From contig NZ_OCMZ01000001.1 in NCBI RefSeq assembly GCF_900215485.1, forward strand, positions 992,001 through 1,056,000: a stretch of DNA of 64,000 nt, read 5' to 3'. Below are positions 14,755 through 34,150 of the stretch, one piece after another. The translations under genes and the position numbers were made by a program. Position 1 is the stretch's first letter. Each line of letters begins with the position of its first letter. Source of the stretch: Nitrosovibrio sp. Nv4 (lineage in GTDB: Bacteria > Pseudomonadota > Gammaproteobacteria > Burkholderiales > Nitrosomonadaceae). Below the pieces are notes generated by a model, which saw only the letters and a program-made list of their open reading frames with translations, had not been told where the DNA came from and ran no database searches.

Positions 14755-15079
14755 TGGTTTCTCCGTTTCCGAAAGGATAATCGAACTGTAGTACAGAATC
14801 CAGGAACAGATTCCGTGGGGTACAAACTTGAGGGGATTTGGTAGTTTAGCGCGCGAAGCGCAGCAGCGGTCTTGCGAGAAGCTGCGGGCGATGCAGAAAG
14901 CGGAGCGGAAGGCAGTTTATTTGCTTCATATCGGAAATATAAAGGGTTTCCTGAATCCGTGCAATAGCGATATTGGATGCTGCGGCTATCCTGTTTTTAA
15001 GGGGTTCCGTCAGAAGTAATTCGCCAGCGCTGTCCAGCCGATTGCATAAGTTGTGGTCGTACCGGAGCAGAACCTTGAT

Positions 15080-15424
15080 TCAGCAGCTTTCATCTCGGGT
15101 CGAGTCAATAAGAAGTACGCGGCAATTGCCGGCGTGAAGCGTTTCTGGCGCGTTTCTGAATAATCTCTCCGCCGCACACTCAGCTGGAAACTCAGCCGGC
15201 AACTGGGTTGAACCAGCAGGCAAAATCTGGATAATCACAAGGCACACGACGAAAGTCGTAGCCTGCATGGCTACGCCGATGGCAATGCCAAGGGGTGCAG
15301 CGCGGTTGATGCCCGGTGTAAACGGACTATCGTACCCATGAAGGTGGGTGAGGATTGGCAAGAGTCGGGGAGCGGAAAACACAGGGAGGGCGATATCGGA
15401 TTTGATTACGCTTTCCCTCGCCAT
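15080..15424 (-). CDS. Doubtful hypothetical protein
   Basis: A 114-residue frame with no recognised domain. One hydrophobic segment lies near residues 46-68 (LGIAIGVAMQATTFVVCLVIIQ). The stretch QLPAEFPAE that follows is the translation of a degenerate 12-bp tandem repeat. No convincing ribosome binding site. It could be a decayed or spurious frame; kept only because no other gene explains the interval. Confidence 0.2.
   Translation of the reverse strand: MARESVIKSDIALPVFSAPRLLPILTHLHGYDSPFTPGINRAAPLGIAIGVAMQATTFVVCLVIIQILPAGSTQLPAEFPAECAAERLFRNAPETLHAGNCRVLLIDSTRDESC
15175..15210. repeat. Degenerate 12-bp tandem repeat (about 3 units)
   Basis: Three successive 12-mers, cacactcagctg, gaaactcagccg and gcaactgggttg, share a core like ACTCAGcyG. 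The same kind of unit recurs at 20313-20381. Confidence 0.5.
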
Positions 15425-15793
15425 GTCATGCCCTTGAAAAAATAAGTGGATGAACAGGTCAAGTCCACCGCTTATCTATTTCGATACCGGCGAGAAACGA
15501 CCATTCGTGGCATTGCAGGAAAAATTCTACGCCCTGAGCGCCAAGGCTCTGTTCGCCATCGCACTTAACGGTTGTTTGACTCGTTCTGCGGATAGCCAGC
15601 ATCAGTTATCAGTTTTCCCGGTTGACGTTTGTTCACCGCCGCGGGCAGATAGAATTAAATCACCTGCATGAAAGGACGTGCAGATATAAAGAATAAGGAG
15701 CCTGGGAAAATACGCGAGCTAAATAACGGGGAAAAAAGTACATTTTCCCGGCAAGCCAGGAGAAACACCTGTCAGGAAGAGAAATGGATCAGT

Positions 15794-15824
15794 CCAGGGT
15801 GGCCAAACCGCCTGGCCAGCCTGG
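15794..15824 (-). terminator. Hairpin downstream of the porin gene
   Basis: Inverted repeat with 11-nt arms (15794-15804 and 15814-15824), 10 of 11 positions pairing, loop of 9 nt. It lies 30 bp beyond the porin stop codon. There is no T-run on the minus strand, so a termination role is only plausible. Confidence 0.4.
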
Positions 15825-15853
15825 GCTGATAAGAGAATTGAATACGGTTATTA

Positions 15854-17506
15854 TCAGAAAGCGATCTGATACTGCAGTACAAACTGATTTCTATTCGAAA
15901 CCTTGAATCCGCCGGAATTGAACACCGGTCTGTTTTGAAAATCGAAAGTAACCTTGCTGTTGTGCCCTTTTATCAGCCAATTCACGCCAGCGCTGAATAC
16001 GTTCATCTGATCACGTAGGCGATCGAAATTTGCGCTCGTAAAAGAAAAGTAAGGCATCAGTTGACCGTTATTTCCGCCGAGTAATTGCTTCGCCATCAAA
16101 TATCCTATTTGTCCATACCAGATATCGCCTGTGCCGAACATCGGAAAAGCGTTGCCACCGCCGATGAAGGCGGCGGAGCTTCCGTTAGTGGGATTCACGC
16201 CGTTGCCATTGGCGCGAAGATAATTTGGCCCATAATTGGTATTGAAATAGCCTAGATAAGCGGAAATGGCTGTTTCCTTCACCTTGTCCACTGGGGCATC
16301 GAGGTAACCCGCTACCGACCACAAGTTCATGTCATGAAAGTCGGCAGTTGCCTCCGAAGCGCCTGTCCATGTCGCATTTTTTTGCGTGATGAAGCCCGCT
16401 TCAAGATTCAATATGCTTTTCTTGCCCAGGTAGGTTCCCTGCATGTAAGGGTTGGTCATCGGTTCCTTATCCCAGAAATTCCACATGAAAAATCCCTGAT
16501 ATTGTTTTCTGTGACCGGTTCTCGCAAATTGGGCGTCCGTTGGCGAGATGACTTCCGGCGGGAGTCCGGAAGTGTTGATGGGAAAACTATCGCTCGCGCT
16601 AACGCGATAATTGAGGTTGCCGATCTGCCCCCTCAGATAGAGGCTTAATTTTCTGTTGAATATGTCGGTGCGGTCTGCGGTGGCTTGAGCGAACAATGGG
16701 ACATCCATGGTCATGATTGTGCTAACGCTCGGGCTGCTGAAGCGGGAAAGGCCATTGGCCATGACGAGACCGCCCCCCACAATCATTTGATGGCCCTGCG
16801 TCAGCCGTAATTCACCAAAGGCGTCATGAAAGAAGGATTGAAGTTTTCTGTTATCTGCATTCTGACTCAGAAAATTGAAATTATTCATACCGTACTGGGT
16901 ATAAAAATATACCCGATCGGTGAGCTGGCCCTGCAGCACAAAGCGGGTTCTGCGCAGGCTGATATCAGTCGTATCATCCACAGGTTCGCCTAATACGGTT
17001 GATCCCGGATTATTTTGTTCATACCGTAACCAGGCCTGATTCAAAAAACCAAACTTGAGGTACTGACTTCCATCGGGATTCAGATTGAATTTGAACGGGT
17101 CTTTTTCCTTCCAGTTTGCATAGCCAAATCCCCCTTTTGGTTTTTCCGGGCCAGCTGTTGCTTTATCCGGGGAACCGGCGGCTACCGGCGTCCCTGATGT
17201 TCCTCGGGGAAGCTGGGGTGAAGTCAAATCCTTGCTTTGGTCAGTGGGTGACTGGCCTGCTCCAGTGCTAACCGTGCGCTTTGTCTTTGTACCAGCCTCT
17301 GGAATTTTTTCGAAGGAACCCATGCGTACCCTGCCTTCTCCAGGTTCTGAATAAATCTGCTTGGTTTTAGTATCAACATAAAGGTCAATGGTATAAGACT
17401 GCGAGGATGCGTCCTCGGACTCTGGAGGCGCGGATTTGTCCTCGGCATACAAAGGAGTGGAAAGTAAACAACCGGACAGCAATATCAGAGAAAGATCACG
17501 TTTCAT
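15854..17506 (-). CDS. Outer-membrane porin with long N-terminal linker
   Basis: A 550-residue exported protein. The signal peptide (MKRDLSLILLSGCLLSTPLYA) is followed by about 120 residues rich in Ser, Thr, Pro, Gly and Lys, then an outer-membrane beta-barrel of the phosphate-selective porin (OprO/OprP-like) type: LKFGFLNQAWLRYEQ, SLRRTRFVLQGQLTDRVYFYTQYG, alternating aromatic strands and a C-terminal phenylalanine (FVLQYQIAF), the usual BAM recognition end. Substrate cannot be told. The N-terminal linker holds a small motif, DLYVDTKTKQIYSEPGEGRV, that looks like a folded periplasmic element. Upstream is AT-rich and contains an ATTCTTGACATTTT block shared with the carbonic anhydrase genes. 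Confidence 0.8.
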   Translation of the reverse strand: MKRDLSLILLSGCLLSTPLYAEDKSAPPESEDASSQSYTIDLYVDTKTKQIYSEPGEGRVRMGSFEKIPEAGTKTKRTVSTGAGQSPTDQSKDLTSPQLPRGTSGTPVAAGSPDKATAGPEKPKGGFGYANWKEKDPFKFNLNPDGSQYLKFGFLNQAWLRYEQNNPGSTVLGEPVDDTTDISLRRTRFVLQGQLTDRVYFYTQYGMNNFNFLSQNADNRKLQSFFHDAFGELRLTQGHQMIVGGGLVMANGLSRFSSPSVSTIMTMDVPLFAQATADRTDIFNRKLSLYLRGQIGNLNYRVSASDSFPINTSGLPPEVISPTDAQFARTGHRKQYQGFFMWNFWDKEPMTNPYMQGTYLGKKSILNLEAGFITQKNATWTGASEATADFHDMNLWSVAGYLDAPVDKVKETAISAYLGYFNTNYGPNYLRANGNGVNPTNGSSAAFIGGGNAFPMFGTGDIWYGQIGYLMAKQLLGGNNGQLMPYFSFTSANFDRLRDQMNVFSAGVNWLIKGHNSKVTFDFQNRPVFNSGGFKVSNRNQFVLQYQIAF

Positions 17507-18156
17507 TAAGGCTCCGTTTTTCGAGGTCTATCTATGCAATTAGGTTATTCAGGGAATTATTAGAATTAGTTATTCTGAATATTGGGAGGAAGAGGGAAAA
17601 ATCCTTATACCTTCAAGGAAAAAATAGCACGGTGTATGTAAATAAAATGTGAAAAAAAAGTTATAAAAAATGAAGAATCCATAAAGAAAATGTCAAGAAT
17701 AAGTGAAATATCCGTGAAGCTTAATATGCATATCCACTATGACAAAAGGGTCTTGAGAGAGCAGTGCGTGTTCTAAATGGAAAATATGGACCAGCGCCCC
17801 GGCTAAAGTGCTGGGAGTACGCGTGCTCTGCCGTTCGCACAGCAGGCTGAGGACTGAGGGGTGAGATCTACCATAGCGGGGCCCTGAACAGGTTGCGCGC
17901 GACGCGCGTTATCTCGGAAACCAGATAATAGTCAGAGGGTGAGTGCGACGAGGACTAGGATGGGGCGTTGACGGCGATGTGGAATCCGCAACACAGGTAT
18001 GTCGATTTTGCCGCAGTTCCGCGTGAATGCCTGGGGGGATTGCAATGTGAGCGGGCCGTGTGCCAGACAGTGCTAGTGAGTTATGATGAGAGATGGGACT
18101 AGACAATTAGCGGCTACGCTCAGCTACATCTCAGCTATGTATTAACCCATTAACCA
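17507..18156. other. Intergenic region upstream of the porin
   Basis: 650 bp with no convincing gene. The first 230 bp next to the porin are clearly AT-rich compared with the surroundings and probably hold its promoter. On the minus strand ATTCTTGACATTTT (17687-17700) contains a TTGACA hexamer. The rest holds small repeats such as attaacc copies at 18141-18160 and a GCGCGCGACGCGCG palindrome-like stretch near 17896. Confidence 0.5.
17687..17700 (-). promoter_or_regulatory. TTGACA-containing block upstream of the porin
   Basis: On the minus strand this reads ATTCTTGACATTTT, matching the core of the block found upstream of both carbonic anhydrase genes. It lies about 180 bp upstream of the porin start. 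It may be a -35 element or a regulator site; no good -10 hexamer is visible at 17 bp spacing. Confidence 0.35.
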
Positions 18157-18555
18157 TTAACCGCCTCCGGCGCCCCCTGCCGAAATGTTGGTGTCCACAT
18201 CCCGATTCGGTCCGCATGAATCGGGCGCAGATAGCATTCTGATGATCTTGCGGAAGAAACCTCCCTGATCAGGCATTGATTGCCCGCATGAGCCAGGTTC
18301 CCGGTCTGCGGAGGACGAGCCGGTTTGATCAGGCGCACCCTTGTTTGGGGAAGGACTGTCATCTTCGGACGCCGTCGCTTTTTGGCCTGTTGTATCGCTT
18401 CCTTGCAGGGGTTGGGCCTCTGCAGTTGAATCTGGGCACGCAGGCATCGAGCCGGTATTCTTTCCGGTTGCGTCAGCCTGTGCGGGGGGCGCTACTGATG
18501 TCCCGAAAAATATCGCGCAGGCAAGTATCAAAGATCGGACTATGCCGCTTTTCAT
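18157..18555 (-). CDS. Small secreted protein A (tandem paralogue)
   Basis: An unrecognised 132-residue protein. A signal peptide (MKSGIVRSLILACAIFFGT...AQA) is followed by a low-complexity Ser/Gly/Pro/Asp/Gln-rich region and a C-terminal block. The last 43 residues match about 29 of 43 positions of the next gene upstream, with the ending GPNRDVDTNISAGGAGG almost identical. Three cysteines lie in the mature part. The start at 18555 is chosen because it begins the signal peptide; a longer frame reaches 18669. No Shine-Dalgarno is evident. Precursor-like layout (leader, variable middle, fixed end) is notable, but no function is known. Confidence 0.6.
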   Translation of the reverse strand: MKSGIVRSLILACAIFFGTSVAPPAQADATGKNTGSMPACPDSTAEAQPLQGSDTTGQKATASEDDSPSPNKGAPDQTGSSSADREPGSCGQSMPDQGGFFRKIIRMLSAPDSCGPNRDVDTNISAGGAGGG

Positions 18556-18634
18556 AATGGAAACGTAGCTCACGATAAGCGGTAATCCACAGACTCCAGA
18601 TGGCAAAAAACCGGTCATTGCCGGGCTATGAAAC

Positions 18635-18982
18635 TCAGCCTCCCGCGCCCCCTGCTGAGATATTTTCATCCACGTCCCGGTTAGGTCCGGACGAATCGGG
18701 ACCCGTCAGGACTCTTATGACCTTGCAAAGAAAATCCTCCTGGTCTGCAATAGACTGGGGGCACCAGCCAGACCGTTTTCCTGCGGACCAGCCCGTTGAA
18801 GAGCCATCCTGTCCAGACGAGGCCGGCGCGGCTGATAACCCCGTCTGTACAGTTACCGTTGCCTGGCCTTGTTCCTGCGCGGCGGTTTGTGCATGGCATA
18901 CGCTTGTGATGCCAAAATTGATGACGTTGACAAGAAAAACGGATGTGGCGGCAAGGTTTTTCAGAGTGAAATTATGCGTCAT
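18635..18982 (-). CDS. Small secreted protein B (tandem paralogue)
   Basis: An unrecognised 115-residue protein, start ATG at 18982 with AGGAAG upstream. The N-terminus (MTHNFTLKNLAATSVFLVNVINFGITSVCHAQ) looks like a signal peptide. A Gln/Ser/Gly-rich middle precedes the conserved C-terminal block QSIADQEDFLCKVIRVL, then GPNRDVDENISAGGAGG at the very end. Protein A downstream (79 bp gap) shares this block, so the pair arose by duplication. It follows carbonic anhydrase 1 by 154 bp on the same strand and may be cotranscribed. Confidence 0.65.
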   Translation of the reverse strand: MTHNFTLKNLAATSVFLVNVINFGITSVCHAQTAAQEQGQATVTVQTGLSAAPASSGQDGSSTGWSAGKRSGWCPQSIADQEDFLCKVIRVLTGPDSSGPNRDVDENISAGGAGG

Positions 18983-19136
18983 TACGTGTTCTTCCTCACT
19001 CCAACAAAATAGCCTTTGCCCCATTCTGCTTGAACAACGTCCCCAGGTCGAGATGCTGGCCGGCATCTCATCAGGTCAAAATTGACATCGGCATTAAATC
19101 AATGCGTAGGTAATACGCGGTTTTGCTCCGCGGATC

Positions 19137-20108
19137 TTATGCGGCAGAACCCGAGAAATCCGGATTGATCGGGCGCCGCTTGTTTTGACGGATTCCGGCA
19201 AAGCCTATCAGGATCAGTCCCGCTAGCAGCATGGCATAAGTTTCGGGTTCCGGAACAGCTGCTGCAAATGCCGGTTCGAGCGTATCGCTATGAGGAATCA
19301 GCGGACCCAGGATTGGATCCAGGATTGGGTTCAGGATACTCGTTCCCGATTCCCCACTGTGGTCAACGAATCCCGGCACGTCAGTAAGCACAATTCGTCC
19401 ATTGAGCTCCTGAACTTCACGCGAGTTGCCTTCCGGGAACAACGACTCGAAGGCGTCAATCTGGCCTCCGGATAGATATAGGGGGCTAGCCAACTGGACC
19501 CAACTTACGTTCTCCGAAAATGGAGGGGTGGTGAGGGAACCGGAGTAGCGGAAAGAGCCCAGATAATCTGGCAGAAGCGTGTTTAAATTGAAATGATCGA
19601 TGTGTAGTGTTTCGTCGGTAGTCTGCGGTAAATCCGAGAAAATGGGATCGAGCGATTTATTATTGAAAAGGCCTTGCCTGATCCCTCGGCTGACCACAAG
19701 GAGGTCGTTGGCGGAATCGGCGAATACGAGGTGCATTTCCATGGGCGTTCCCCGACTATTTATCAAGTGCTCGGAAGGTGTATGAAAGTGAAACTGAGCG
19801 AGATTCCATTCATGGCCGGAAAGTAGCAGAGATCCCGCCCCGGCGTTGACATTGGCTCTGATGGTGCTTTCGTGATCCGGAGAGCCGTTATTGATCACTG
19901 CCAGCGAGGTGTCAGAGTCCAGGTCGAATTTCAGCGGCGCCAACTTTCCGTAGTATGTATTATCCGAGCGAATGTCAATGGGGCTTTGTGACTCCATTAA
20001 CTCCAGATTCTCCTCCAGGGTATTTGCATTAGAAGCGGGCAATCCGCACAGGAAGAGGGTTGAAATGAGCAGGGCTCGCTGCGATAGTCCAAGCAATGAT
20101 ATTTTCAT
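19137..20108 (-). CDS. Alpha-carbonic anhydrase with PEP-CTERM sorting signal (copy 1)
   Basis: Interconverts CO2 and bicarbonate outside the cytoplasm. The 323-residue product has a signal peptide (residues 1 to about 28), an alpha-class carbonic anhydrase domain with SQSPIDI, zinc ligands in QFHFHTPSEH (H107, H109) and EMHLVF (H126), and YSGSLTTPPF. The C-terminus is a PEP-CTERM signal: VPEPETYAML at 285, a hydrophobic helix and a basic cluster, indicating exosortase processing (no exosortase in this window). Compared with copy 2 it carries an extra linker, encoded partly by a 12-bp triple repeat (ILNPILDPILGP). Residues 1-60 are close to copy 2, a recent duplication. Confidence 0.92.
   Translation of the reverse strand: MKISLLGLSQRALLISTLFLCGLPASNANTLEENLELMESQSPIDIRSDNTYYGKLAPLKFDLDSDTSLAVINNGSPDHESTIRANVNAGAGSLLLSGHEWNLAQFHFHTPSEHLINSRGTPMEMHLVFADSANDLLVVSRGIRQGLFNNKSLDPIFSDLPQTTDETLHIDHFNLNTLLPDYLGSFRYSGSLTTPPFSENVSWVQLASPLYLSGGQIDAFESLFPEGNSREVQELNGRIVLTDVPGFVDHSGESGTSILNPILDPILGPLIPHSDTLEPAFAAAVPEPETYAMLLAGLILIGFAGIRQNKRRPINPDFSGSAA
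19307..19342. repeat. Three 12-bp units inside carbonic anhydrase copy 1
   Basis: The units ccaggattggat, ccaggattgggt and tcaggatactcg follow each other exactly in frame and encode the repeating linker peptide between enzyme domain and PEP-CTERM helix. The insert is absent from copy 2. Confidence 0.75.
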
Positions 20109-20312
20109 GAAAAAGGCCTCAGATAAAATGTTTTAGAAGATGGTAATTACATTACGATGGCTTAAGAAATTCACATACATATCCTCTCCTGGGCTCAGTA
20201 ACAGCCGAGCTGGCAAAATCGGAGGTGATCAGTACGCGCGACAAAAAATAGTACCGCAGCCATCCGCTTCTACATTGCGATGCGAGGAATGCAACCCATG
20301 AGCATCCAATGT

Positions 20313-20381
20313 TGCAGCTCAGTTGGCAATTCAGTTGCCAGCTGAATTGCCAACCGAGTTGTCAGTTAAGTTGCAACCAAG
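20313..20381. repeat. Degenerate 12-bp tandem repeat (5-6 units)
   Basis: Successive 12-mers tgcagctcagtt, ggcaattcagtt, gccagctgaatt, gccaaccgagtt and gtcagttaagtt, then a partial unit. All five end in TT and share a GSCARYTSARTT-like pattern. A related but shorter array lies at 15175-15210. Confidence 0.7.
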
Positions 20382-20460
20382 CGGCGGATAAGGCGTTGCG
20401 GGAGCGGTCCATTGTCAGGCTTGCAGCACCTGCATTGGATCTTGTTGGAGGTATCTGAAC

Positions 20461-20510
20461 ATAACACTCTTTGTGTGAAAAAAATGTCTGCTAAATGTCA
20501 AGAATTTGTT
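20461..20510 (-). promoter_or_regulatory. Conserved upstream block, copy 1
   Basis: This 50-bp stretch aligns without gaps to 21704-21753; 33 of 38 bases match in its best part, and an ATAACA is shared at the other edge. On the minus strand it reads AATTCTTGACATTTAG then TTTCACAC and TGTTAT. It lies about 350 bp upstream of carbonic anhydrase copy 1. Confidence 0.5.
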
Positions 20511-20793
20511 AGGCCTTTTTCATGCGACAAAATCAGTGTCATCATTTCGGCAAGCGCCTAATGGGTAGCTGGCGGATCGTTGATCGAAATCCCGGAGTAA
20601 TCGCAGAGCCGCAAATCTCCGGCAGCGAACCCGGCAGTAGTATTGAACGATGGACATGGAATGAATCAGCCCAGGCGCGCTCGGAGCTATTCCGCGCGAC
20701 GCTTGGGGTGGAAACTGTAAGGGAACCTGTAATGGCGTAGCAAAAGGTTAGGGTTAGCCCACTATCGCGCTTCGCGGGTAAACCTGGTGCTCG

Positions 20794-21648
20794 TCAAGAA
20801 CTGAATACAACGTCATCTCTTCCCACCTGACGTTTCCTGTAAATGAAACCTATCAAAACCAGCCCGGCTAGCAACATGGCATAGGCCTCAGGTTCAGGAA
20901 CGGCTGCCACAAACCCAGGTACATCGGTCAGTATAATCCGACCATTGAGATCCTGAATCTCGCGCGCATCACCTTCGGGGAAAAGCGAACTGAACGCATG
21001 AATTTGCTCCTCCGACATATAAAGCGGTTCGGCCAGATCGACCCAGCTTACGCCCTCTGAAAACGGCGGGGTTGTCAGGGAACCGGAGTAGCGGAAAGAG
21101 TCAAGATTATTTGGCACAAGGTTATTCAGGTCGAAGTGATCGACATGAAGTGTTTCAGTAGTAGTCTGGGGTATATGTGAGAAAATCGGGTCAAGCGCGC
21201 TGTTAAAATTGCCTTCCTTGACCCACCGGCTGACTACGAGGAGATTGTCGGCAGCATCGTTGAACACCAAGTGCATTTCCAGGGGACTCGACTGACCATT
21301 CAGTAAATGCTCCGAAGGTGTATGGAAATGGAACTGAGCCAAATCCCACTCATGCCCAGAAAGTGTCAGCAATCCCGCACCGGCATTGACATTGGCTCTG
21401 ACGGCCGTTTTTTCCACGCCAGGCGAGCCGTTATTGATTACCGTTAGCGGAGCGTCAGTGCTTAGAGCGAATTGCAGTGCTGGCAATGTTCCGAAATAGG
21501 TATTGTCCGAGCGAATGTCGATGGGACTTTGAGACTCCATCGTGGCGAGATTATCGGCCAACGTCTCCGCATGTGCGGGCAGGCCGCACAGGAAAAGGGC
21601 TGGAATGAACAGGGCTCGCTGCAATAATCCCGACAATGATATTTTCAT
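20794..21648 (-). CDS. Alpha-carbonic anhydrase with PEP-CTERM sorting signal (copy 2)
   Basis: Second exported alpha-class carbonic anhydrase, 284 residues. Signal peptide to about residue 28 (FLCGLPAHAE), zinc ligands H107 and H109 in QFHFHTPSEH and H126 in EMHLVF, and the YSGSLTTPPF loop. The C-terminal VPEPEAYAML at 250, hydrophobic stretch LAGLVLIGF and YRKR form a PEP-CTERM signal for exosortase-dependent sorting. The long linker of copy 1 is missing, so the enzyme domain runs almost directly into the sorting signal. AAGGA lies 10 nt upstream of the start. It is transcribed in the same direction as copy 1, 685 bp away. Confidence 0.93.
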   Translation of the reverse strand: MKISLSGLLQRALFIPALFLCGLPAHAETLADNLATMESQSPIDIRSDNTYFGTLPALQFALSTDAPLTVINNGSPGVEKTAVRANVNAGAGLLTLSGHEWDLAQFHFHTPSEHLLNGQSSPLEMHLVFNDAADNLLVVSRWVKEGNFNSALDPIFSHIPQTTTETLHVDHFDLNNLVPNNLDSFRYSGSLTTPPFSEGVSWVDLAEPLYMSEEQIHAFSSLFPEGDAREIQDLNGRIILTDVPGFVAAVPEPEAYAMLLAGLVLIGFIYRKRQVGRDDVVFSS

Positions 21649-22151
21649 ATGAGAGTCCTTACAAGGTTATGACAAATGTTTGAGATGGCGTTGTGTTAAA
21701 AAAATAACATGCGCCGTGTGAAAAAGCTGTCCTCTAAATGTCAAGAATTTGTCAACCCTGCCGGATATGCAGTGAATCCGGCCACTGTATCGCCAGTAAA
21801 GCCGCATACAAGCTATGGTGTATCAGAGCCGATTCTCCGCCCCAAATATCACGCATGGAGACTGCCGCGTCGCAGTGATGGGCCAAAGCGCCATGGAGTT
21901 GATAGAGACGAGGGAGGCCGGGAAGGGGCGAATGGCAGTCCCTTCATCAGGACAGACCAGGTGAACATCGCCACCGAGTCTTTTCCACGCGATGAAGTGG
22001 GATACTTTCCAAATCTTTTTCACCCGCCGCCGCTGAAGCAGCAGGGGTAGTGCCAGCACGAGGTCTTGTGACCCTTGCGTGCAGGCAACGGCACCAATGT
22101 TTACACGAGGGGTTGTTGCGAGAGGAGTTGTTACGAGAGTCGCGGGATTCC
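21649..22151. other. Intergenic region between zwf and carbonic anhydrase copy 2
   Basis: 503 bp with no convincing gene. It contains the second copy of the conserved upstream block (21704-21753) and, near the zwf stop, an imperfect 15-bp direct repeat (gaggggttgttgc and gaggagttgttac, 22109-22139). Confidence 0.5.
21704..21753 (-). promoter_or_regulatory. Conserved upstream block, copy 2
   Basis: Counterpart of 20461-20510, located 56-105 bp upstream of the start of carbonic anhydrase copy 2, a normal promoter distance. On the minus strand it contains TTGACA within AATTCTTGACATTTAG, then CTTTTTCACAC and TGTTAT. Preservation of both edges suggests a regulatory function. Confidence 0.55.
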
Positions 22152-23546
22152 CTATTCCGGATTGTGCCAGCAGCCATCCGGCCCGATCAGGGAATCCGCT
22201 GCGGGAGGTCCCCAACTGCCCCTTTCATAAGGTAGGGCGGGGGGATATGTCTTGAGGACAGGATCCAGGGCCGCCCAAGAGGCTTCGATCGCGTCTTTTC
22301 GCGTGAAGAGTGTTCCGTCGCCCACCATGGCGTCATGTAAAAGGCGCTCGTAGGGCGATTCGCGTCCGAAGTGTTCTTCGACCAGGCAGAGTTCCCGCTG
22401 GACACCGACAAACTCTTTTCCCGCGCGCTTGACGCGGGCCGCGATAGCAACGGCTGAGACCGGGGACAGCCGGAAGCGCAAATAGTTGGCGCGGCAAGCT
22501 TCTTCGGGCGAGTCGTCAAAAAGTCGTTGTGGCGGCGGTTTTAACTGGACAATAACTTCCGCTGCTGTCCTGGCGAGAGATTTGCCCGAGCGTAAATACC
22601 ACGGCACCCCTTCCCAACGCCAGGAGTCAATAAAAAGGCGCAGAGCGCAGAACGTCTCGACATCGGAGTCTTTCGCCACACCCTCCTCCTTGCGGTAGCC
22701 CACATACTGCCCACGCACCAGGTCAGCTGGCGCCAAGGGACGCATGGCCTGGAGAATATTGACTTTTTCGCTTTGAACGGAGCCTAGTCCCTTGTAGGCA
22801 GGCGGTTCCATCGCAAGCAGTGCGACGACTTGCAAAAGGTGGTTCTGAACTACGTCACGAAGACAGCCTGCGGATTCGTAAAATCCACCACGTCCCTCTA
22901 TGCCAAAATCCTCCGCCAGCGTGATTTGAACGCTGGCCACATAATTTCGGTTCCAGATCGGTTCAAGAAGCGAATTGGCGAACCGGAAATATAAAATATT
23001 CATGATCGCCTCCTTCCCGAGGAAGTGGTCGATACGGAAAATCGATTCCTCCGGAAATACAGACTGTGCGATCCGGTTAAGCTCACGTGCTGAGGCGAGA
23101 TCACGTCCGAACGGCTTTTCAACAATGACACGCGCATTGCTTGCCAAATCCATGGCACCGAGCCCCCTTATGACATTTCCAAAAAGAAAAGGTGGAATGG
23201 CAAGGTAATAAGCAGGGCGCTGTGCATCCTCCAGAACCTCCTTGAGTGCTTTGAATGTGTCCAGATTATTGTAATCGCCGCGAACATATCGAAACAGGGA
23301 AAGAAGATGGCTAAGCGCGTTTTCATCATCGACTTTTCCCGACTTGCTTACGGCCTGGGTGACCCTGTCACGAAGTTGCTCGATGCTCCATGGTGTGGAG
23401 GCGACGCCGACCAACGGCACATTGAGAGCCTCTTTCTTTACCATGGCGTATAGTGCCGGGAAAATCTTTTTATAGGCCAGGTCACCCGTCACGCCGAACA
23501 GCACCAACGCATCGGACGGCGCCGCATCATTGTTGATCTTGCGCAT
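22152..23546 (-). CDS. zwf: Glucose-6-phosphate 1-dehydrogenase
   Basis: Oxidises glucose-6-phosphate to 6-phosphogluconolactone, the entry to the oxidative pentose phosphate pathway and a source of NADPH. The dinucleotide-binding [10 protein letters not shown] (residues 18-27), EKPFGRDL and the catalytic block RIDHFLGKE (171-179, His174, Lys178) are present. The usual tyrosine of RIDHYLGKE is phenylalanine here. At 464 residues it is slightly shorter than most homologues. GGGAGG lies 8 nt upstream of the start. It is the last gene of the pgi-tkt-pgm-zwf series on the minus strand. Confidence 0.95.
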
Positions 23547-32121: not shown

Positions 32122-33825
32122 TTACACCAGAATCATTTCAGAAAGACCTTTTCCACCTGGCACCATGGGGAAGACATTCTCGGTCTGGTCCGTTATGAAA
32201 TCCATGAATACCAGCCTGTCTTTGAGTTTGAATGCCTCTTCCAATGCGTTTTGGATATCGCCGGGCTGCTCGATTTTCATACCGACATGACCATAGCTCT
32301 CCGCCAATTTGACAAAATTCGGCAGCGCATCCATGTAAGACTCAGCGTAACGATTGCCATGGAAGAATTGTTGCCACTGCCGCACCATCCCCATATATCG
32401 ATTGTTCAAATTGATGATCTTGAGCGGAAGATTATATTGCTTGCAGGTGGATAGCTCCTGTATGCACATCTGGATGCTGGCCTCGCCCGTAACGCAAGCC
32501 ACCGCGCCTTTGGGGTTTGCGAACTGCACGCCCATGGCTGCGGGAAGACCAAAGCCCATGGTTCCGAGGCCACCCGAATTTATCCACCGTCTTGGCAAAT
32601 CGAATTTATAGAATTGGGCGGCCCACATCTGATGCTGGCCGACATCCGACGTAACAAAAGCGTTACCGCTGGTTACCTCATAGAGCTTTTCGACCACCAT
32701 TTGCGGCTTGATGATCGAGCTGGCGCGGTCGTATTTGAGGCAATCGCGCGCACGCCACAGATTGATCTGGGTCCACCAGGCGTCAAGGGCGGTTTGATCG
32801 GGCTTCTCCTTGCGGACCTTGAGCAATTTTATAAGTTCGTCCAGCACGCCGGAAACACTGCCAACAATGGGCACATCGACCTTGACGCGCTTGGAGATGG
32901 ATGAAGGATCGATGTCTATGTGAATAATCTTGCGGTCTTCGTTGAAGAAATGCTTTGGATTGCCGATGACGCGATCGTCAAATCGGGCGCCAACAGCCAC
33001 AAGCACATCGCAATGCTGCATAGCCATATTGGCTTCGTATGTGCCATGCATGCCAAGCATCCCTACAAACTGATTGTCTGTCGCGGGATATCCGCCCAAT
33101 CCCATCAGCGTATTGGTACAAGGAAAGCCCAGCATTCGTACCAACTCAATCAATTGCGGCGACGCATCACTCAGGATCACGCCACCGCCCGTGTAGATCA
33201 TCGGCCGCTTGGCTTCCAGTATCAGCTGTACCGCTTTCTTGATTTGTCCGGCATGTCCCCTGATGACCGGGTTATACGAGCGCATCGAAACACTCTCCGG
33301 ATAGACGAATGCCGTTTTCTGCTGACTGACATCCTTTGGAATATCCACCAGCACTGGGCCGGGGCGGCCGGTTGAAGCGATATAAAACGCTTTCTTGATG
33401 GTAGTGGCCAGTTCAGCGATATCTTTTACCAGAAAGTTATGTTTAACGCAGGGGCGGGTAATACCAACGGTATCCACTTCCTGAAATGCATCCAGTCCGA
33501 TGGCGTGCGTCGGCACTTGCCCACTGATGATGACCAGAGGAATCGAGTCCATATAAGCAGTGGCGATGCCGGTTACGGCATTAGTCACGCCGGGACCGGA
33601 TGTCACCAGGGCCACTCCTGTCCTGTTACTGGAGCGTGCATAGCCATCCGCTGCATGCACTGCCGCTTGTTCATGGCGCACCAGCACATGTTTGACCTTG
33701 TCCTGCTTGAACAACTCATCATAAATGAACAGCACGGCGCCACCGGGATAGCCAAAGATATGGTCCACCCCTTCCTCCTGCAAACAACGCACCGTGATTT
33801 CAGCGCCAGTCAGTTCAGTGCTCAT
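32122..33825 (-). CDS. ilvI: Acetolactate synthase large subunit (biosynthetic)
   Basis: Catalytic subunit of acetohydroxyacid synthase, ThDP- and FAD-dependent, first shared step of branched-chain amino acid synthesis. ThDP-binding Glu lies in RHEQAAVHAADGYAR; GGLGTMGFGLPAAMGVQ and the C-terminal ThDP motif region near GEASIQMCIQEL are visible. In that last motif GEAS replaces the commoner GDGS, so Asp is substituted by Glu. The ATG at 33825 (MSTELTGAEITVR) is preferred to 33849. Length 567 residues, normal. Confidence 0.95.
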   Translation of the reverse strand: MSTELTGAEITVRCLQEEGVDHIFGYPGGAVLFIYDELFKQDKVKHVLVRHEQAAVHAADGYARSSNRTGVALVTSGPGVTNAVTGIATAYMDSIPLVIISGQVPTHAIGLDAFQEVDTVGITRPCVKHNFLVKDIAELATTIKKAFYIASTGRPGPVLVDIPKDVSQQKTAFVYPESVSMRSYNPVIRGHAGQIKKAVQLILEAKRPMIYTGGGVILSDASPQLIELVRMLGFPCTNTLMGLGGYPATDNQFVGMLGMHGTYEANMAMQHCDVLVAVGARFDDRVIGNPKHFFNEDRKIIHIDIDPSSISKRVKVDVPIVGSVSGVLDELIKLLKVRKEKPDQTALDAWWTQINLWRARDCLKYDRASSIIKPQMVVEKLYEVTSGNAFVTSDVGQHQMWAAQFYKFDLPRRWINSGGLGTMGFGLPAAMGVQFANPKGAVACVTGEASIQMCIQELSTCKQYNLPLKIINLNNRYMGMVRQWQQFFHGNRYAESYMDALPNFVKLAESYGHVGMKIEQPGDIQNALEEAFKLKDRLVFMDFITDQTENVFPMVPGGKGLSEMILV

Positions 33826-34150
33826 GCTATCTTTAATTCCAATGTTCAATGTTGAGTATCAGCAAAAATATATTAAATAGAACGTTGAACAGTAACGTTT
33901 AGGTGATCTCTGGTCAATCGCTTTGATCAGGGGTCCACGGGGACGGGAGTTATGCTCCGGCGTATCCAAAAGTTGTTTCATCAAACAGGCAACTGCAGCC
34001 TGTAGGGAGATGTGAAGGAACGGCAAGTTCAGCAAACCGTGGATGGAGCAAGCCAAACCTCGAGCGTTTCCGTATTGAATAATCGATCGTCGGCTCTAAC
34101 CCATCATTATAATGCTGAATCTGCGCCTCCCGGATGAAAATCAGAGAAAC
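33826..34150. other. Region between fur and ilvI
   Basis: About 325 bp upstream of ilvI and downstream of fur. It holds a 10-nt imperfect inverted repeat (33844-33853 and 33881-33890, GTTCAAtGTT type) flanking an AT-rich stretch. An open frame at 33859-34056 is rich in Leu/Ile/Val codons at its start but has no terminator/antiterminator pair that I can draw, so no leader peptide is claimed. Confidence 0.45.

What the first reader, a model, noticed from the sequence alone, without database searches (positions are those of the whole stretch)
18157..18982. Tandem secreted small proteins with a near-identical C-terminal block
Two adjacent, unrecognised proteins have signal peptides, divergent low-complexity middles, and a shared C-terminal block of about 43 residues (29 identical), ending GPNRDVDxNISAGGAGG. 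Constant end, variable middle and secretion leader suggest a secreted peptide family: a toxin-like, signalling or surface-anchoring module. They sit next to two exported carbonic anhydrases. No processing or modification enzyme gene is adjacent, so a RiPP role is not supported by context.
Basis: partly seen in the sequence, partly recalled or inferred. Interest (0 to 1): 0.72.

Follow-up and report, generated by a model that had tools for sequence, protein, structure and literature searches.

The report
Secreted protein pair beside a porin
Nearly every sequenced member of one genus of soil ammonia-oxidising bacteria carries a pair of small, apparently exported proteins that end in an almost unchanging glycine-rich tail and sit next to one outer-membrane channel they may serve or control; what they do is untested.

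Summary
Two adjacent minus-strand genes, A (18635-18982, 115 aa) and B (18157-18555, 132 aa), have Sec-type leaders, divergent low-complexity middles and a shared C-terminal block (29 of 43 identical; shuffles reach at most 16). It is a real family: 21 of 23 genomes of the genus (Nitrosospira/Nitrosovibrio) carry it, 19 as an A+B pair, with no credible match found elsewhere. A and B are old paralogues. The tail is under strong protein-level constraint while synonymous sites are saturated. No Pfam, NCBIfam, PHROGs or PADLOC model matches A or B.

The carbonic anhydrases are not the informative neighbours. The tail proteins track an outer-membrane porin (15854-17506): same 21 genomes, absent from the same two, relocated together in two genomes, decayed together in one. 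A second porin clade, in a sulfonate-type ABC locus, lacks A/B.

Best explanation: A and B are exported accessory proteins of this porin and the C-terminal peptide is a short docking or plug motif. The linkage is shown by comparison; contact and gating are inferred. A sorting tag is unlikely; a modified-peptide role has no correlated enzyme, but only one enzyme family was tested. Both structure models were too poor to test docking.

The parts
18635..18982 (-). Gene A, 115 aa: leader, low-complexity middle, two Cys 12 apart, short amphipathic helix, tail ending GPNRDVDENISAGGAGG
   Evidence: family in 21 of 23 genus genomes
18638..18766 (-). Conserved C-terminal block of A (last 43 residues)
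18157..18555 (-). Gene B, 132 aa: leader, low-complexity middle, amphipathic helix, tail ending GPNRDVDTNISAGGAGGG
18160..18291 (-). Conserved C-terminal block of B (last 44 residues)
15854..17506 (-). Outer-membrane porin, 550 aa, present in the same 21 genus genomes as the tail and absent from the same two
17507..18156 (-). About 650 bases between B and the porin with no convincing gene; no Rfam match. Role unknown, conservation not tested

Best explanation
A and B are exported accessory proteins of the outer-membrane porin encoded just downstream. Each has a Sec-type leader, a disordered spacer, a short amphipathic helix and an acidic, then glycine-rich, free C-terminal peptide. The peptide is the working part and most likely docks on or in the porin as a short linear motif, adjusting what passes (plug or constriction). 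The two paralogues, whose ends differ by one residue in length and by E/D/S against T before the N, would serve two related sites or states. Shown by comparison: the family, the old duplication, the constraint on the tail, the tracking with the porin. Inferred: export, contact with the porin, gating.
For: Same 21 of 23 genus genomes hold tail and porin, and both are absent from the same two. Porin or its remnant lies within about 1.2 kb downstream of the tail genes on the same strand in 20 of 21 genomes (the other, G103, at 9.8 kb). A-B-porin stands together in G105 and G106 without any of the usual flanking genes in the 18 kb read. G107 and G108, which lack tail and porin, fall apart in a G6PD+PGM tree, so joint absence arose more than once. 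In G112 A has an early stop, B is not found and the porin is a remnant. Only one of two porin clades goes with A/B (14 linked and 4 unlinked rows, 100/99). The last 18 codons have dN 0.12 (A) and 0.07 (B) against 0.75 and 0.97 in the middles at saturated dS. The model of A shows no fold beyond the leader and a helix at 84-93 (low confidence).
Against: No contact was shown; no complex could be predicted and both models are poor. Neighbouring genes can be lost by one deletion without working together, and the independent events are few. Genome sharing inside one genus is not independent evidence. Porins of the second clade do without A/B. B and the porin are 650 bases apart, so one transcript is not shown.
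Confidence: 0.35

Rival explanations
1. A and B work in the same process as the porin but do not touch it: for instance they handle the same substrate or bind a metal or the envelope, and the tail recognises something else.
For: The same comparative linkage. The tail has an acidic D-x-D-x-N stretch, which could bind a metal; this is a resemblance by eye, not a test.
Against: Nothing distinguishes it from the docking reading except that the constraint reaches the very last residue, which suits a recognised free end.
Confidence: 0.28
2. No functional link: A, B and porin are separate genes of a variable stretch between G6PD and leuA and are gained and lost together because they are neighbours.
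For: That stretch takes in other genes: carbonic anhydrases, a TPR protein, a TPP enzyme, cytochrome-oxidase-like genes. A single deletion would explain G108, and probably G107.
Against: The three stand together elsewhere in G105 and G106, and in G112 they decayed by separate lesions while leuA, G6PD and a carbonic anhydrase there still match at full length.
Confidence: 0.22
3. A and B are precursors of a released or modified peptide (RiPP-like), the conserved end being the product.
For: Leader, variable spacer and constant end are the usual layout of a precursor; A has two Cys 12 apart in 18 of 18 rows.
Against: No modification gene was recognised next to A/B in the neighbourhoods listed. The one enzyme family tested genome-wide, MNIO (PF05114), is in 23 of 23 genus genomes, including those without A/B. 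B has no kept Cys. Other enzyme families were not tested.
Confidence: 0.1
4. The tail is a general C-terminal sorting or anchoring tag, like PEP-CTERM.
For: Constant C-terminus on exported proteins; PEP-CTERM proteins are next door.
Against: Only the two paralogues per genome carry it; no hydrophobic segment or basic end in the tail; no PEP-CTERM match in A or B.
Confidence: 0.05

Closest known systems
CsgF, accessory of the curli channel CsgG
   Same: Working principle only: a small exported protein whose terminal peptide lines an outer-membrane channel and adds a constriction (abstract of PMC7304575).
   Different: CsgF uses its N-terminal 27 residues and a nonameric channel; here the conserved end is C-terminal and the channel is a porin. 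No sequence relation was found or sought beyond the family scans.
PEP-CTERM sorting signal (PF07589, TIGR02595)
   Same: C-terminal constant segment on exported proteins; the two neighbouring carbonic anhydrases have it.
   Different: A and B have no match; their tail is polar and glycine-rich and occurs on two proteins only.
OprO/OprP-type porins (PF07396) and ExtI porin (NF040900), for the porin
   Same: 4 of 18 aligned porins match PF07396, best E 6.6e-5; the window porin matches ExtI at 52.5 bits.
   Different: The window porin itself has no Pfam match at E 0.1 and is far below the ExtI cut-off of 150 bits.
MNIO-modified exported RiPPs (bufferin kind; recalled)
   Same: Sec-type leader, small size, Cys pair in A.
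   Different: The enzyme is about 180 kb away in the own genome and present whether or not A/B are; B has no kept Cys.

Membership tests
PEP-CTERM or similar sorting tag | Same tail on many unrelated proteins of a genome | tested here: not met
   Own genome: two strong matches and two weak ones at E about 0.67; 23 genus genomes with a profile: no further credible match
PEP-CTERM or similar sorting tag | Match to the curated model | tested here: not met
   A and B: 0 families in Pfam and NCBIfam at E <= 1
MNIO-modified RiPP precursor | Modification enzyme beside the precursor or tracking it across genomes | tested here: not met
   PF05114 in 23 of 23 genus genomes, also in those without A/B; not among the neighbours listed
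MNIO-modified RiPP precursor | Modified residues in the mature peptide | not testable with these tools
   Needs mass spectrometry
Channel-lining accessory peptide (CsgF-like principle) | Gene linkage and co-occurrence with one channel | tested here: met
Channel-lining accessory peptide (CsgF-like principle) | Terminal peptide inside the channel | not testable with these tools
   No complex prediction available; monomer models poor
Known defence or phage protein | Match to PADLOC or PHROGs | tested here: not met
   None for A, B or porin at E <= 0.1
ExtI porin (for the porin) | Curated NCBIfam score | tested here: not met
   52.5 bits against 150
OprO/OprP-type porin (for the porin) | Match to PF07396 | tested here: inconclusive
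   4 of 18 members, best E 6.6e-5; not the window protein

The most novel reading that the evidence does not exclude
A pair of exported paralogous proteins, of no known family, that gate one dedicated outer-membrane porin through a free glycine-rich C-terminal peptide: a two-subunit, removable porin plug that arose in the Nitrosospira lineage.
Probability: 0.15. Interest if true: 0.65.

Novelty: new variant of a known kind. Interest (0 to 1): 0.42.

Why it matters
Porins are usually treated as stand-alone pores. A dedicated exported partner pair with a near-invariant terminal peptide would be an unusual way to control outer-membrane passage, in bacteria that carry out soil nitrification. The unit is small, nearly genus-wide and naturally missing in two genomes, so it can be tested. 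If the porin link fails, an uncharacterised, strongly constrained, genus-restricted protein family remains.

Tried and rejected
Carbonic anhydrase as partner: rejected (homologue in 22 of 23 genus genomes, also in both without A/B; not beside A in 4 of 20 judged loci). Sorting tag: rejected. MNIO-modified peptide: not supported. Chance similarity: rejected. DNA-level conservation or recent duplication: rejected (synonymous sites saturated; A and B on the two sides of one branch, 97/96).

Led nowhere: Rfam in 15000-22500, none; promoter and terminator scans at the shuffle level; PDB sequence searches, porin alone and as a profile, none at E <= 1, tail profile nothing better than E 0.49; viral contigs, none; literature. 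Weak tail-profile matches in G105 and G106 (E 0.004 and 0.01) lie, on the opposite strand, at ORFs that look to me like ribosomal protein S16 and RimM (names by eye), and are taken as chance. G001, of another genus, has a weak hit (E 0.03, 39% over 36 residues) in a 453-codon frame; taken as chance, not followed up. The models: A mean pLDDT 54.5, porin 41.7, too poor to use. Ten positions separate linked from unlinked porins, 7 of them in 249-279; without a structure, and with clade membership alone able to explain them, I give them no weight.

Full report
What is there. On the minus strand lie, in order of transcription, two carbonic anhydrase genes with PEP-CTERM ends (20794-21648 and 19137-20108), then A (18635-18982, 115 aa), B (18157-18555, 132 aa; 79 bases after A) and a porin gene (15854-17506). 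A and B each begin with a Sec-type leader judged by eye, continue with a low-complexity middle and end with a block in which 29 of 43 residues are identical. In 500 shuffles of the mature sequences the best 43-residue identity was 16.

It is a family. A 50-residue query matched at E <= 0.1 in 22 of 125 genomes of the taxonomic family: 21 of the 23 of the own genus and one weak hit in another genus (E 0.03) that I take as chance. A profile found the same 21 of 23. A scan of genome contigs gave 13 related loci, 11 titled Nitrosospira and 2 Nitrosovibrio; it rests on exact short peptides of B, so distant relatives could be missed. The profile found nothing besides the own genome among 369 genomes of the class at E <= 0.01 or 398 of the phylum at E <= 0.001, both samples. 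Of the 21 genomes, 19 have A and B (in G109 A is cut by a contig end), G112 has a broken A only and G113 a B-type gene only.

Two old paralogues under protein-level constraint. In a tree of 18 A and 20 B end regions the two sets fall on the two sides of one branch (97/96), and A is upstream of B in the pairs read. A has two Cys 12 residues apart in 18 of 18 rows; no Cys position is kept in all B. Synonymous change is saturated (dS 1.8 to 2.7), while dN is 0.12 (A) and 0.07 (B) in the last 18 aligned codons against 0.75 and 0.97 in the middles. Selection keeps the end of the protein, up to its last residue. AlphaFold2 gives A no fold beyond the leader and a short helix at 84-93 (mean pLDDT 54.5). 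This fits a disordered protein with a short linear motif, but a shallow alignment (25 rows) could also give a poor model. A and B match no model of Pfam or NCBIfam at E <= 1 or of PADLOC or PHROGs at E <= 0.1.

The neighbour that tracks A/B is the porin. At E <= 1e-20 the porin is in 21 of 125 family genomes, exactly the 21 genus genomes with the tail, and absent from the same two, G107 and G108. In 20 relatives' loci plus the window, the porin or its remnant lies within about 1.2 kb downstream on the same strand in 20 of 21; in G103 it is 9.8 kb away, with ORFs resembling cytochrome oxidase genes between (profile names only for the counterparts in L047 and L056). In G105 and G106 A-B-porin stands together with none of the usual flanking genes in the 18 kb read. 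In G108 leuA lies next to G6PD with about 500 bases between; in G107 a carbonic anhydrase is still there but A, B and porin are not. A tree of G6PD+PGM for 19 genomes puts G107 and G108 apart, so the joint absence arose more than once. In G112, grouped with G108 at 84/88, A has a stop after the leader and ends GGAGD, no B is found and the porin is a remnant, while leuA, G6PD and a carbonic anhydrase there still match at full length or nearly so. The carbonic anhydrase has homologues in 22 of 23 genus genomes, with or without A/B, and lies within about 2 kb upstream of A in 16 of 20 loci that can be judged, sometimes with another gene between (and the window).

What the porin is. Distantly OprO/OprP-like: 4 of 18 aligned members match PF07396 (best E 6.6e-5), the window protein does not; it matches the ExtI model at 52.5 bits against a cut-off of 150. 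No solved structure matches by sequence. Outside the genus I saw one relative among 369 class genomes at E <= 1e-30 (G149, 31% over 295 residues) and three plasmid records of Bacteroidota at 29-30%. Five genus genomes carry a second porin. Their flanks were fetched and listed (output partly cut); in L101, the one examined by profiles, the neighbours are a sulfonate-type binding protein, a permease, a flavoprotein of the fumarate reductase kind and a HEAT-repeat protein, and ORFs of the same sizes recur in the listed parts of the others. No tail gene lies there. Four of these five and 14 linked porins form two clades (100/99), so A/B go with one clade only. The porin model is too poor to use (mean pLDDT 41.7).

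How it probably works. I give most weight to A and B being exported partners of the linked porin. The free glycine-rich end of kept length, the acidic D-x-D-x-N stretch and the amphipathic helix before it (hydrophobic moments 0.72 and 0.82) suit a peptide that docks on a protein or in a channel. CsgF, whose N-terminal 27 residues line the CsgG channel and create a second constriction (abstract of PMC7304575), shows that the principle exists; no relation is claimed. Docking, gating and even export are inferences. The chief weakness is that neighbours can be lost together without working together, and independent events are few.

Rivals. (1) Same process, no contact: nearly as compatible. (2) No link: the G6PD-leuA stretch is variable, but the joint relocation (G105, G106) and joint decay (G112) speak against it. 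(3) Modified or released peptide: the one enzyme family tested, MNIO, is in 23 of 23 genomes; not excluded. (4) Sorting tag: unlikely.

What is in print. Full-text searches (Nitrosospira with porin, hypothetical protein and proteome; with carbonic anhydrase or PEP-CTERM; with comparative genomics, secretion and outer membrane; N. multiformis locus tags guessed from position; porin plugs) showed nothing on these proteins in the listings. Passages of PMC5960693 mention abundant uncharacterised N. multiformis proteins; whether any is A or B I could not determine. Only this open library was searched, and supplementary files were not readable.

Verdict. A real, uncharacterised, nearly genus-wide pair under strong constraint, linked to a porin rather than to the carbonic anhydrases. 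Function open; a porin accessory role is the best testable reading.

Noticed in passing
L097-L101 (for example L101:571-9232): A second clade of the same porin stands in a locus with a sulfonate-type ABC transporter, a fumarate-reductase-like flavoprotein and a HEAT-repeat protein (profile names from L101 only), suggesting an anion or organosulfur porin.
   Followed up: partly
L048:9665-10882; similar-sized ORFs in L052, L055, L065: A TPR-repeat protein with an apparent leader lies between the carbonic anhydrase and A in these loci (named by profile in L048 only).
   Followed up: partly
L047:11767-14826 and L056:13228-14343; similar ORFs in L055/L102: Cytochrome c oxidase subunit genes lie downstream of the porin, or in G103 between B and the porin.
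   Followed up: partly
L056:11346-13235; window gene 32122-33849 also hits near the porin in L059, L060, L065: A pyruvate-oxidase-like TPP enzyme gene next to the porin in several genomes.
   Followed up: no
G000:C3:829280-830062 (outside the window): An MNIO (PF05114) gene in all 23 genus genomes, about 180 kb from A/B in the own genome; its own substrate was not looked for.
   Followed up: no
window 15854-17506, residues about 39-66 of the porin: A near-invariant segment after the porin leader (IDLYVDTKTKQIYxEPG) shared by linked and unlinked porins; unexplained.
   Followed up: no
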